Source of the DNA: Glandiceps talaboti
Lineage: Eukaryota > Hemichordata > Enteropneusta > Spengelidae
Reading direction: 5' to 3'
Length of the DNA stretch: 64,000 nt
Assembly (NCBI RefSeq): GCF_964340395.1
Contig: NC_135555.1
Location: 18,726,115-18,790,114 of the forward strand
This document shows, piece after piece, positions 11,120 to 15,483 of the stretch; the stretch's first letter is position 1, and each line of letters begins with the position of its first letter. Position numbers and translations under genes: made by a program. A model generated the notes under the pieces. It did no database searches. It saw only the letters and a program-made list of their open reading frames with translations, and was not told where the DNA came from.

Positions 11120-11218
11120 TTAAAGATGTTCTACCGTGTGTCTACTAAGAGGTCCGAAACTAAGAACGTCATTATTATTCCGAAGGCGGTCCGAAACCCG
11201 GGACGTCGTCATTCCGAA
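11120..11218 (-). repeat. Imperfect tandem duplication across the stop codon of the VPS4-like gene
   Basis: Two adjacent units of about 35 nt on the minus strand share CTTCGGAAT...GACG...TTTCGGACC. The first encodes the C-terminal tail NDDVPGFGPPSE; the second begins with the TAA stop. The tail has no counterpart in VPS4, which ends FTNDFGQEG. Confidence 0.65.
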
Positions 11219-14200
11219 GGTTTTGAATTTTTGATGTGACATTCAACTTGAAACTGTATAGTTCCTCCCATTCTTTTTCACTGACGCTGCTACAGGAATT
11301 ATTGACGGCTTTTATAAAGTCATCCTGCAATAAAACAACGAGATATCATAAACATTTGTACAAAAACATTTCCAACATTGCCTTCTGGTCTGTCGAAATT
11401 TTTCATCCTATACTTCTGACACGATCGTACGACGGACTAGAACCGTTTCAAAGAAGTTATATATATTGATATATTCACTTGCGTTTGTTACTTTTTCAAA
11501 CTGTTGTTTTGTTACCATTATATAAAGACATGTCTTAATTTGTCGTCATATCTAATTTACTATGGCCGTCGACTTAATTTAAGGTACGATTCAATCCTAC
11601 TCGACTTACGACAGTGATTTCTGGAAGAAGTAATTTATTTTCAGGTGCGTCAGCCCATGACATCGCAAGTGCGCCCTCATCGTCCGGATTGCAAGGTGTG
11701 TACAAATCATCTTCCATCACCGATGGATTTTCAGGACTTGGACCTCTTACCTGTAATACACAGAATTTTATCAAAATGTGGTGTGTGTTTTTTAATATTT
11801 GAAATAACATTTTTCAGAAACTAAAATCTGTGATGACAATTAATAAAAGCGATAGCATGCTGAAAATCTATAAAAATTATATATAATATGTTATCTATAT
11901 GATCAGTGTCTCGCTGGAGAGAACGGTGCTAGCTCGATGCAAATATTAGTAGCAGAGCATTATAGACTACATACATATAAATATAATGTATATATTATAA
12001 AAATTACATCCTTATTCTGTTGAATTATAAAGTATATATATATATATATATATATATATATATATATATATATATATATATATATATATATATATATATA
12101 TATATATATATATATATATATATTAATGACTTGTTGAACATGTAGTAGTGTCCGGGGTCAGCTAACCTTACTTCAAATCCAAAGAAAATACTTATTAGCG
12201 CCTTTTCAAGCTATGACATAAACACACGAACCCTAGCAAATGATCATGAACTACGCATGTTCGAACAAAAGAAAAAGGACACTCATTTATGTGATCAAAG
12301 GAAATTAATGCAGAATAAATGGTAAGTAAAGATATATATTCGTATCCAAACCTAGTATATACATATAGGGTGTGTGTGTATACCTTTTTGAAATGTGTCG
12401 ATGTCGTTATACTTCTAAGTGGAATCATGCACGCTGAAGAGATTAAACTGCTTATGTCTGCTCCTGAAAAACTAAGAAAATAATTTGATATTATTTACTT
12501 TTGACTTTTTTGATGAAAAAGATAGATATAAGTTACACTAGAAAGTACCCTATGGTTGTAGATTTGTAAACGCATCATTATTTTACTCAAGTTCAAGTTC
12601 AGACATATCTTGCCTTACCTATAAACATGGATTTTATAAGAATTGAGCTCATTTGACGGTGAACCCTTTTGCAATGTGATAGAAACTTCCTAACCCCCCT
12701 CAGTCTGCCTCATGCAGTCTCTGTCTGTCTGTCTGTCTGTCTGTCTGTCTGTCTGTCTGTCTGTCTCTCTCTCTCTCTCTCTCTCTCTCTCTTCTCTCTC
12801 TCTCTCTCTCTCTCTCTCTCTGTCTCTCTCTGTCTGTCTCTGTCTGTCTCTCTCTCTCTCTCTCTCTCTCTCTCTCTCTCTCTCTCTCTCTCTCTCTCTC
12901 TCTCTCTCTCTCTCTCTCTCTCTCTCCTAGACAACCCTAGACCTACCCATCTGTAAGTCTTGCTATCATCCATAGATCGTCTTCAGATAGACAGTGTCGT
13001 TCACTTTGTAACCTTCTTTTGAGAACTTGATGTCGGGCTTCCTCGTCCAGTCGATCGAGGAAAACGAAATGTTCAAAGCTGTCCGAGAAATATCATTCAA
13101 AAGAGGGCAAACAGAGAGGAGAAGTTATAAGATAGAAAGTCATGATGTGATTTGAACGGAAATTATCAAAATATTTTTCGATATGTATAATACAAAAATA
13201 CTGCCTTGTGTAATTCAACTTTGGAATAACATGACACATATCTCTTACCTTTTGAGCAGGTAATCACTTGCGATCCATGGAGTCTGTGTGGCACCGATTA
13301 ATACAAGACCTTCCTTTCCTATCTCGTTACCTGAAGGGTGATGCAAAAGAGATAGGTTAGTACAGGTGGGCAAAAGATACATTTTCAGTCAAACGAGAAA
13401 AAAAGACAAGCGGGTACTGACATCAGTTAGGATTACTGGCCAAATCACAATTTCGAATTCTATAGGATCACTGCCATTATCCTATCTATCGCTGTATAAG
13501 TTTTAAGTGGTGATATCCCATGCATCGATCGGACCTCAGTCGATCTCTGTTGTGTTGGTTGTCTGATATCAAATGTCAATTTCATTTGATATCGAACGTT
13601 AACTAACATGGACGTTTTCAACCGGGGCTACATATTTTGTATATACGTAAGTTTAAGAGCCGTACATATCACATGGTCTTGTACATAAAATGATTTACTC
13701 ACTGTTCATCCAGTATGTAAGATACCGTGATAGTGTCTCTCCCTCGTCTCCATTACAGAATGCACATGGAAACATTCCGTCTGTCGAAAAGAGGTCATCT
13801 AACCAAATAACAGTCGGTCTTGTTTCACTCGATTGCTGCAGAAAAGACTTCAAAAAACTGAAGAAAAAAACATTAGAAAAAATGTATGTGTCAGACAGCG
13901 GCGTCATACTACTAGTATGTTATACAATATTCTTATTGTATATATCCTCACGGAGTACCTTTGTATCGTCCTGCTTTCCAAAATATGCTATTACGTTTTT
14001 TGTCACAATTTGTAATATGAGACCCACCGATGACGAGGAGCTCAGTCTCTTCGAAATATTTGTATGTAGTCTGGACCGGGAGTATGGATGTCAAATTACG
14101 TGGCTTCTAACTGGCGGAGGTGTAAATCGTAACGATACTGTATAGGAACTAGACTAAAATGTGTGGTTCACTATGATATTAGATATTTGTTATCAATTAC

Positions 14201-15483
14201 TCTGCAACAATTATTAACGAATCAGACGACAACGCCACGGCCATATATTATATCAAGGATACGTTTAAAGTAACTTAACTCTTTACTAAAACCTATGTAT
14301 TTGCTGAAGAACTCCATGGAATGTTTGGACCAAAAAGATGCGATGTCGCTGATTTCGCTGTTCACTGCTCTTCTAAGGTAACTCTTGCCCGTTCCTGGTG
14401 GCTGTTTGCAGAAGAAAAGGAAATCTTATAAAAAGAAAACGATATGAAACTGAGCAGGTTTACTTCGATATTCAGTTTTAAGATTTAAAATTTAAAATTC
14501 GATGACTAATGACAATATATATAATTATATAACTGTGATTTGCATGCAAACTTATTCATTTCTCCCCAATTCTATTGCTTTGCTCAATTTGTTATAATGT
14601 GAGTATTTAGAGATACGAAAAATGTGGTATGAATTGTAGTTGACTTCCACATTTACCAGCTGCAGTTTAGGATAATGAAAATAAATTTGTAAGTATACCT
14701 CACCGAACCACGAGGTTCTTAAAATCGAAAACTTATTTTACAATCATAATACTCTGAATAAGAAGAAATTGGTTCGTTGTATACGTACCGCACAAATTAG
14801 AATTGATGTGAAGGGCATGTTACATCCTGAAATGAAATAAGTAAATAAATAGGTAATAAATAAATAAATGAATAAATAAATGAAAAATTATTAAAGTTAT
14901 AAAAATGTATGTATGTCTATGAAAATGTCTGTCTGTCTGTCTGTCTGTCTGTCTGTCTGTCTGTCTGTCTGTCTGTCTGTCTGTCTGTCTGTCTGCCTGC
15001 CTGCCTGCCTGCCTGTCTGTCTGTCTGTCTGTCTGTCTGTCTGTCTGTCTGTCTGTCTGTCTGCATGCATGCATGCATGCATGCATGCATGTATGTATGT
15101 ATGTATGTATGTATGTATGTATGTATGTATATTAAATAAAAAATAAGGCTAACAGTGCAATATACAATATGGCATACTTTAGGGCAATATCCCCGACAGT
15201 CTAGTCCCATGTAATGTACTCAGTAGAACAGGACAGCCATAGTCGTCTGATCTAGTCTGAGCTCCGTCCAAGCTACAGCCTAGTGGTAGTAGATAGCTAT
15301 AGCATATTGGTCCTGCTGCAATCACAATACTATACACCTACCTATACTACGTACTCGTGTTATCCTATATAGGTCACAACACATACCTTGAGTTCGAAGC
15401 GGAGTTATGACAGTTTTCATTAGTGTGTCCTTGGCTTCATCAATTCCTACAACGTCAGACCAACTGATATTTTTCCCTGCCAT
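11175..15483 (-). CDS. VPS4-like AAA ATPase paralogue lacking the MIT domain, altered catalytic residues; complete, 334 aa
   Basis: Nine exons (transcript order): 15483-15387, 14826-14789, 14401-14280, 13857-13703, 13330-13249, 13078-12947, 12471-12384, 11750-11610, 11324-11175; 1005 nt, all GT-AG, phases consistent. The ATG is the first Met after an in-frame stop at 15543-15541 and has a strong context (AAAGATGG). The protein starts at NISWSDVVGIDEAKD, matching VPS4 just after its linker, so the MIT domain is absent. Kept: Walker [10 protein letters not shown] (K51), pore-loop aromatic (Y80 for VPS4 W205), beta-domain motif (DDLYTPCNP, MSWADAPENKLL) and a C-terminal helix. Changed: Walker B LDD (D107 for Glu), sensor 1 Q153 for Asn, and L163-K164-S165 where VPS4 has three Arg. 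Length falls short of VPS4 mainly by the missing N-terminus. Likely a low-activity or inactive AAA subunit acting on VPS4/ESCRT; that role is inference. An acceptor-like CTAACGTACAG 16 nt upstream of the ATG leaves room for a missed 5' exon. Confidence 0.88.
12032..12123. repeat. (TA)n microsatellite
   Basis: About 90 nt of uninterrupted TA in the intron between exons 7 and 8 of the VPS4-like gene. Confidence 0.95.
12719..12926. repeat. Compound (TCTG)n/(TC)n microsatellite
   Basis: It lies in the intron between exons 6 and 7 of the VPS4-like gene, an intron that VPS4 does not have, and ends about 20 nt from the exon-6 donor at 12946. Open frames on either strand here are low-complexity Ser/Leu or Arg/Glu translations of the repeat. 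Confidence 0.95.
14925..15130. repeat. Compound (TCTG)n(CCTG)n(ATGC)n(ATGT)n microsatellite
   Basis: A run of tetranucleotide blocks that drift in unit: TCTG, CCTG, TCTG, ATGC, ATGT. It sits in the intron between exons 1 and 2 of the VPS4-like gene, the second intron not found in VPS4. Confidence 0.95.

What the first reader, a model, noticed from the sequence alone, without database searches (positions are those of the whole stretch)
11175..15483. A MIT-less VPS4 paralogue encoded head-to-head with VPS4
Nine exons give one open frame of 334 codons that aligns with VPS4 from just after the linker to the C-terminal helix. The ESCRT-III-binding MIT domain is absent, with an in-frame stop upstream of the ATG. 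I know of no described animal gene that is a stand-alone VPS4 AAA core. It could co-assemble with VPS4 through AAA interfaces and tune ESCRT-III disassembly. Sequence shows the gene; the function is inference.
Basis: partly seen in the sequence, partly recalled or inferred. Interest (0 to 1): 0.85.

Follow-up and report, generated by a model that had tools for sequence, protein, structure and literature searches.

The report
Broken-engine VPS4 twin beside VPS4
Next to the gene for VPS4, the motor that takes apart the cell's membrane-cutting ESCRT-III filaments, this animal carries an old divergent copy that lacks the targeting domain and the residues needed to burn ATP but keeps the ATP pocket and much of one of the two ring-joining faces, so it may be a natural brake on VPS4.

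Summary
Minus-strand window 15483-11175 encodes nine GT-AG exons and 334 aa, 32% identical to the VPS4 encoded head-to-head. Six of eight introns match VPS4 introns in position and phase. Pfam finds AAA, lid and Vps4_C, but no MIT. Walker B Glu (to Asp), sensor-1 Asn (to Gln) and both arginine fingers (to Lys-Ser) are changed; all four are invariant in 24 archaeal and 4 eukaryotic VPS4-type proteins. It has Lys at human VPS4A Glu206; E206K and changes at finger Arg284 are published dominant-negative disease variants. Published assembly and ATP-site residues split by face: 0 of 9 kept on the finger face, 7 of 11 on the pocket face. Proposed: a non-hydrolysing, one-sided subunit that joins VPS4 and dampens ESCRT-III disassembly. 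Gene structure, VPS4 descent and changed residues are shown; expression, orthologues, co-assembly and function are not. A weak splice donor leaves room for a dying gene.

The parts
15387..15483 (-). paralogue exon 1: MAGKNISWSDVVG...ITPLRTQ; start codon in context AAAGATGG
14789..14826 (-). exon 2 (CNMPFTSILICA and the end of a split Gly codon); the FPHLF stretch of VPS4, with residues needed for assembly, has no counterpart between exons 1 and 2
14280..14401 (-). exon 3: Walker A PPGTGKS, pore loop 1 SKYIG, then GFSKD where VPS4 has GESEK; weak donor GTTAAG
13703..13857 (-). exon 4: Walker B VIWLDD (E to D) and a divergent pore-loop-2 region whose alignment is uncertain (searches align it differently)
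13249..13330 (-). exon 5: sensor 1 GATQ (N to Q) and LLKS at the arginine-finger position
12947..13078 (-). exon 6: FEHFVFLDRLDEEARHQ...LTDG, end of large domain and start of small domain
12384..12471 (-). exon 7: FSGADIS...MIPLRS, keeps the small-domain assembly Met and Arg
11610..11750 (-). exon 8: beta domain VRGPSPENPSVMEDDLYTPCNPDDEGALAMSW
11175..11324 (-). exon 9: C-terminal helix region and a longer, divergent tail ending in GFGPPSE, then TAA
10827..10832 (-). AATAAA polyadenylation-signal-like site about 340 bases after the stop
15484..15499 (-). stretch between an acceptor-like AG and the ATG; the acceptor scores 3.5 bits (third best of 61 AG sites in 15400-16560), within the range of the 17 annotated acceptors (-0.3 to 9.6), so an upstream exon is not ruled out
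15484..16560 (.). 1,077-base interval between the two start codons (head-to-head pair)
16561..25971 (+). VPS4 gene, 10 coding exons, 441 aa, MIT + AAA + Vps4_C, intact catalytic residues

Best explanation
This is a protein-coding gene born by an inverted duplication of VPS4 together with its introns. Its product has no detectable MIT domain, the part that brings VPS4 to ESCRT-III, and has most likely lost ATP hydrolysis. It keeps a plausible ATP pocket (Walker A Lys and Ser, Walker B Asp) and most of the small-domain and beta-domain contacts that receive the next VPS4 subunit. It lacks the arginine fingers and the large-domain patch with which a subunit docks onto the previous one. Most likely it binds ATP without hydrolysing it, takes a VPS4 subunit onto its pocket side, and so caps or poisons VPS4 rings and slows ESCRT-III disassembly where it is expressed. 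Shown: the gene structure, the descent from VPS4, the absence of a detectable MIT, the changed catalytic residues, and the one-sided pattern of kept contacts. Inferred: that it is expressed, binds ATP, does not hydrolyse it, binds VPS4, and acts as a brake.
For: Intact 334-codon frame over nine exons, with 0 of 200 neutral simulations stop-free at the same identity. Six of eight introns match VPS4 in position and phase; one further intron (intron 1, phase 1) matches, by hand inspection of the sequence, an intron of a second VPS4-type gene on contig C17. Changes at sites invariant in 24 of 24 archaeal and 4 of 4 eukaryotic comparators: E to D107, N to Q153, R to K164, R to S165. Kept: K51, S52, D106, and an aromatic pore-loop residue (W to Y80). 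Human VPS4A E206K, R284W and R284G are dominant negative, as is designed E228Q (PMC7820634, passages); this protein has K85, S165 and D107 at those sites (VPS4A numbers taken as VPS4B minus 7, and E206 as the second Glu of GESEK, as the paper's yeast Glu211 requires). In an archaeal Vps4, mutating both arginine fingers leaves hexamers but no ATPase (PMC4686814, section 7 read). Published residues: large-domain face plus fingers 0 of 9 identical; ATP site plus small/beta face 7 of 11; Fisher p = 0.005, grouping made after seeing the data (assembly residues from PMC5520056 and PMC4686814, sections read). Which residues share a face follows from passages of PMC5413351 and PMC6602582.
Against: No transcript, protein or orthologue was available. 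The exon-3 donor is weak (-2.7 bits), and skipping that exon would remove Walker A. The first Gly of the P-loop is Ala, and E398 of the pocket-side contact is Leu, so the pocket side is not perfect; both C-helix contacts are changed, and the second Vta1 site R325 is Trp. In yeast Vps4 the finger R289 is called essential for hexamer assembly as well as hydrolysis (PMC5520056, passage), against the archaeal result. Archaeal Vps4 without MIT needs about 40 times more protein for similar ATPase activity, so an MIT-less subunit may need high expression; the same paper notes opposite reports on MIT deletion. The tree does not place the gene: six alternative positions within the VPS4 set all survive the AU test.
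Confidence: 0.5

Rival explanations
1. A dying gene: a once useful VPS4 copy that has only recently stopped working, so that the frame is still open by chance.
For: Very long branch (2.25 substitutions per site), change of the catalytic Glu, Asn and both fingers, weak exon-3 donor, no expression evidence.
Against: No stop, no frameshift, eight GT-AG introns. Under neutrality the first stop would come after a median 0.018 and by 0.075 substitutions per site in 95% of 2,000 runs, so any decay phase must be short. The lost residues are unevenly spread between the two faces.
Confidence: 0.15
2. A decoy or scaffold that does not enter rings but ties up VPS4 partners such as LIP5/Vta1 through the kept beta domain.
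For: Vps4_C kept at E 3.1e-16; no MIT detected, so it would not follow VPS4 to ESCRT-III.
Against: The second Vta1 site R325 is Trp201, and Vta1 binding through the beta domain alone is weak, Kd 85 uM (PMC5520056, section 6 read).
Confidence: 0.13
3. A divergent but active AAA enzyme with its own ring and its own substrate, unrelated to ESCRT-III.
For: Walker A kept; Asp can partly replace the Walker B Glu in some NTPases (recalled); Tyr in pore loop 1 is also what this genome's spastin has.
Against: Both arginine fingers and the finger-side assembly patch are missing, so a homo-ring would have neither fingers nor contacts.
Confidence: 0.12
4. A full-length VPS4 paralogue whose MIT-encoding exons lie upstream and were missed.
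For: An acceptor-like site with first exon base 15499 scores 3.5 bits, inside the range of the annotated acceptors.
Against: A MIT profile run on 814 six-frame ORFs of window 9-27 kb found only the two known VPS4 MIT exons; next best E = 2.5. The whole-genome MIT search finds no other MIT at this place. tblastn with VPS4's MIT gave only chance-level minus-strand matches (E 0.96 or worse), all beyond 32 kb. The neighbouring 1.08 kb lies between the two start codons, so such exons would have to lie there or antisense to VPS4.
Confidence: 0.07

Closest known systems
VPS4 (VPS4A/VPS4B, yeast Vps4)
   Same: AAA large domain, small domain, beta domain with VRGP...DDL...TPC as in human VPS4B, C-terminal helix region; six shared introns with the neighbouring VPS4
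   Different: no MIT detected, no Walker B Glu, no sensor-1 Asn, no arginine fingers, FPHLF stretch missing, longer tail
Dominant-negative VPS4A disease variants (E206K, R284W/G) and designed E228Q (PMC7820634)
   Same: substitutions at the same three positions, E206K identical
   Different: here they are the state of a separate gene that also lacks the MIT domain; the Walker B change is to Asp, not Gln, and the finger change is to Ser
LAP1/LULL1 with Torsin (AAA+ Activator domains, PMC4358337)
   Same: a degenerate AAA subunit that would work with an active AAA partner
   Different: LAP1 keeps the finger and lost the nucleotide pocket; this protein keeps pocket motifs and lost the finger (passages). 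No common descent implied
RetroCHMP3 (title seen in a reference list only; otherwise recalled)
   Same: a duplicated ESCRT gene that could damp the ESCRT pathway
   Different: RetroCHMP3 derives from an ESCRT-III filament subunit, not from VPS4 (recalled)
Fidgetin / katanin / spastin (meiotic-clade AAA)
   Same: related AAA core; fidgetin also lacks MIT (recalled)
   Different: the protein's best PDB matches are VPS4, and it has the animal VPS4 beta-domain sequence
Giardia VPS4 paralogues (PMC12611102)
   Same: extra VPS4 copies, one (GlVps4b) without an MIT recognised by domain databases
   Different: GlVps4b has a non-canonical MIT-like N-terminus that binds Ist1 (passages); here the predicted protein begins at the AAA core

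Membership tests
VPS4 ATPase | AAA core plus Vps4_C/beta domain of VPS4 type | tested here: met
   Pfam AAA, AAA_lid_3, Vps4_C above cut-off; PDB best hits VPS4B
VPS4 ATPase | N-terminal MIT domain | tested here: not met
   no MIT by Pfam in the protein, nor nearby by whole-genome MIT family search, tblastn or a local MIT profile
VPS4 ATPase | Walker A lysine | tested here: met
   K51
VPS4 ATPase | Walker B glutamate and sensor-1 asparagine | tested here: not met
   D107 and Q153; Glu and Asn in 24 of 24 archaeal and 4 of 4 eukaryotic comparators
VPS4 ATPase | two arginine fingers | tested here: not met
   K164 and S165; Arg-Arg in 24 of 24 and 4 of 4
VPS4 ATPase | assembly interface, both faces | tested here: inconclusive
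   by sequence, finger face 0 of 9 kept, pocket face (ATP site included) 7 of 11 kept; no structure or binding test
VPS4 ATPase | disassembles ESCRT-III | not testable with these tools
   needs protein
AAA+ Activator domain (LAP1/LULL1) | no nucleotide pocket, conserved arginine finger | tested here: not met
   the reverse is found: Walker A kept, finger lost
katanin / spastin / fidgetin | closer to these than to VPS4 | tested here: not met
   best PDB hits are VPS4B; in an eight-sequence tree it stays outside the katanin/FIGNL1/spastin group (support 98), though its own position has support 50

The most novel reading that the evidence does not exclude
A natural, genetically encoded one-sided VPS4 cap: an ATP-holding, non-hydrolysing subunit that receives VPS4 on its pocket face but cannot dock its own finger face, and so ends the VPS4 spiral or ring. 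It would be a dedicated brake on ESCRT-III disassembly, the mirror image of LAP1/LULL1 with Torsin, built from changes at the same sites that are dominant negative in human VPS4A.
Probability: 0.3. Interest if true: 0.82.

Novelty: new variant of a known kind. Interest (0 to 1): 0.62.

Why it matters
VPS4 uses ATP to take ESCRT-III apart, and dominant-negative VPS4 is a common laboratory tool (recalled; examples in PMC7820634). A gene that looks like such a mutant, standing beside the normal gene, would mean that an animal makes its own VPS4 inhibitor. It would give a natural tool to ask how many dead subunits a VPS4 ring tolerates and which end of the spiral matters, and would raise the question of what the brake is for (timing of abscission, endosomes, or resistance to enveloped viruses; these three are speculation).

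Tried and rejected
Missing MIT exons: searched by Pfam, whole-genome MIT family, tblastn and a home-made MIT profile; nothing on the minus strand near the gene. Not excluded for an unrecognisably divergent MIT.

Recent duplication: rejected as the simple reading. At 55 sites where own VPS4 and human VPS4B differ, the paralogue matches human at 16 and own VPS4 at 3 (36 neither); 9 of the 16 are also the yeast residue, none of the 3. It also keeps an intron position absent from own VPS4 but present in the C17 gene. So it probably split before own VPS4 took on its derived changes. Older origin could not be dated: all six constrained trees pass the AU test, though one (sister to yeast Vps4) fails the bp-RELL criterion.

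Relation to the C17 gene: sister-to-C17 is neither preferred nor excluded.

No eukaryote collection was on hand, and the host assembly has no relatives in the genome set, so dN/dS, orthologues and expression could not be tested.

Literature: none of ten searches, eight of them aimed at VPS4 copies, MIT-less VPS4 or inactive AAA copies (the last two at RetroCHMP3 and Torsin), showed a described MIT-less, finger-less animal VPS4. I saw listings, some capped (20 of 28, 20 of 57), and the library holds open-licence papers only. Papers opened: passages of PMC12611102, PMC7820634, PMC4686814, PMC5413351, PMC5520056, PMC7618577, PMC4358337, PMC6602582; one whole section each of PMC5520056 and PMC4686814.

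Phylum: the assembly is unnamed. COX1 on contig C40 has ATA at four positions that are Ile in other animals (recalled) and no AAA or AGA, which fits an acorn worm (hemichordate) by recall; unproven.
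Full report
WHAT IS THERE. The finding's coordinates are exact. On the minus strand nine exons (15483-15387, 14826-14789, 14401-14280, 13857-13703, 13330-13249, 13078-12947, 12471-12384, 11750-11610, 11324-11175) join to 1,005 nt, 334 codons and a stop, all introns GT-AG. The neighbouring VPS4 is a complete 10-exon, 441-aa gene on the plus strand, 16561-25971, with MIT, AAA, AAA_lid_3 and Vps4_C. The start codons are 1,077 bases apart, head to head. An AATAAA lies about 340 bases after the paralogue's stop.

DESCENT. The paralogue is 32% identical (101/317) and 60% similar (191/317) to own VPS4, with PDB best hits VPS4B, then yeast Vps4, then p97/Cdc48-type chains. 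Six of its eight introns fall at VPS4 introns in the same phase (five in the same alignment column, one two columns off beside a gap). Of the other two, intron 1 (phase 1, in the Gly before xxxP[W/F]) coincides, by hand inspection of the sequence printed, with an intron of a second VPS4-type gene on contig C17, so it is probably ancestral and lost from own VPS4. At 55 sites where own VPS4 and human VPS4B differ, the paralogue has the human residue at 16, own VPS4's at 3, neither at 36; 9 of the 16 are also yeast's. The duplication is therefore probably not recent. A tree of 15 sequences and 272 columns gives it a branch of 2.25 and does not place it; all six tested positions survive the AU test. 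No second copy was seen: the Vps4_C search of the whole assembly (590 Mb, 47 contigs) gave eight places, of which two are own VPS4 exons, one is the paralogue's exon 8, and five lie on other contigs (the tool calls its counts lower bounds). The search of the assembly with the protein itself did not complete.

IS IT A GENE. Neutral decay of the VPS4 core to 32% identity always produced stops (0 of 200 runs free; mean 10.2, minimum 3) and fewer positives (mean 0.457, maximum 0.514, against 0.60). If it were drifting neutrally now, the first stop would be expected at 0.018 substitutions per site (median; 95% by 0.075). So it has been under protein-level constraint for most of its history. Against it stands one weak donor, GTTAAG after 14280, -2.7 bits while the other 16 donors score 3.2 to 12.2. 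It is nevertheless at the conserved intron position and phase. No expression data were on hand.

NO MIT DETECTED. Pfam finds none in the protein. The whole-genome MIT search lists 12 places up to E = 1; at this place only own VPS4's two MIT exons. tblastn with the MIT part gives only chance-level minus-strand matches (E 0.96 or worse), all beyond 32 kb. A profile built from own, human, mouse, yeast and archaeal N-terminal regions, run on 814 six-frame ORFs of window 9-27 kb, again found only the two VPS4 exons, next best E 2.5. An acceptor-like AG before the ATG scores 3.5 bits, so an unrecognisable upstream exon cannot be fully excluded.

A DEAD MOTOR. Against 24 archaeal VPS4/CdvC-type proteins (of 67 fetched loci; the rest did not pass the plus-strand ORF filter) and own VPS4, human VPS4B, yeast Vps4 and the C17 protein, the paralogue keeps Walker A Lys and Ser and Walker B Asp but changes the Walker B Glu to Asp107, sensor-1 Asn to Gln153 and the two arginine fingers to Lys164 and Ser165. 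These four sites are invariant in 24 of 24 and 4 of 4. The P-loop's first Gly is Ala. Of 126 columns identical in the four eukaryotic VPS4-type proteins it keeps 58. It has GFSKD where VPS4 has GESEK: Phe83 and Lys85 at VPS4A Glu204 and Glu206. In the passages read of PMC7820634, VPS4A E206K, R284W and R284G, found in patients, and the designed E228Q, act as dominant negatives on endosomes. The paralogue has K, S and D at these three sites. Pore loop 2 is too divergent to align safely: disagree there.

ONE GOOD FACE. PMC5520056 (section 6 read) lists residues whose mutation reduces yeast Vps4 hexamers; PMC4686814 (section 7 read) adds VPS4B Phe160 and Met350. In Vps4 the fingers of one subunit complete the pocket of the preceding one (PMC6602582, passages), and a subunit's small domain contacts the following subunit (PMC5413351, passages). 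So fingers and large-domain patch form one face, pocket and small/beta domain the other. In the paralogue the finger face has 0 of 9 identical (E147, L151, K154, F155, L158, F159, R163, R288, R289; K154 and R288 change conservatively, L158 and F159 fall in a gap), the pocket face 7 of 11 (K179, S180, D232, Met350 of VPS4B, R352, W388, L396 kept; E233, N277, I351, E398 changed). Fisher p = 0.005; the grouping, which counts ATP-site residues with the pocket face, was made after seeing the residues. Large-large contacts are mixed (K215 and E247 kept, D201 to Glu, R241 to Cys), the two C-helix contacts are not kept, and the second Vta1 site R325 is Trp.

HOW IT MOST LIKELY WORKS. A subunit with a pocket that can hold ATP but hardly hydrolyse it, and with the face that receives a neighbour, could bind the finger face of VPS4 firmly, as ATP-locked VPS4 does. 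Lacking its own finger face it could not close the ring on the other side or fire the neighbour's pocket. Lacking MIT it would reach ESCRT-III only with VPS4. The net effect would be fewer or slower VPS4 rings. Reports differ on what the fingers do for assembly: archaeal finger mutants still form hexamers without ATPase activity, whereas in yeast R289 is called essential for assembly too (PMC5520056, passage); the second fits a subunit that can join on one side only. The steps from ATP binding onward are inference. Archaeal Vps4 without MIT needs about 40 times more protein for similar activity, which argues for a need of high local expression; that paper also cites opposite reports on MIT deletion.

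KNOWN OR NEW. Ten literature searches in an open-licence library (listings, some capped) showed no described MIT-less, finger-less animal VPS4. The nearest parallels are Giardia's VPS4 copies, disease-type dominant negatives and LAP1/LULL1 with Torsin, which keep the finger and lose the pocket. It should not be filed as a VPS4 ATPase, since MIT, Walker B Glu, sensor-1 Asn and the fingers were tested and not met; it is a VPS4-derived, probable pseudo-ATPase.

LIMITS. No relatives of the host are held. The katanin, spastin and FIGNL1-like sequences in the tree are partial hand-made models, and so is the C17 protein.

Noticed in passing
L027/L028 (G000:C17:17886000-17905800), minus strand: A second VPS4-type gene with intact Walker B Glu, sensor-1 Asn and arginine fingers and a shorter beta-domain region; tblastn with VPS4's MIT gives nothing better than E 1.3 in the 20 kb upstream. 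It shares an intron position with the paralogue that own VPS4 lacks.
   Followed up: partly
L032 (G000:C4:18530900-18540800), minus strand, about 6843-6649 and 6637-6467: A katanin-p60-like gene has two tandem copies of the P-loop and pore-loop exon, one with SKWRGESEK and one with SKYHGESEK, separated by only 47 bases (counted by hand); this looks like a mutually exclusive exon pair that would swap the pore-loop aromatic residue.
   Followed up: partly
window about 33554-38934, minus strand: ORFs that read like a BTB-kelch protein (by eye).
   Followed up: no
window about 43613-58537, plus strand: ORFs that read like a leucyl-aminopeptidase-type (NPEPL1-like) gene (by eye).
   Followed up: no
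G000:C40: The mitochondrial contig holds COX1 three times 15,435 bases apart, so it looks like a head-to-tail repeat of the mitochondrial genome, probably an assembly artefact.
   Followed up: no
window 12024-12122 and 12700-12940: Long (TA)n and (GA)n-type simple repeats within paralogue introns 7 and 6.
   Followed up: no
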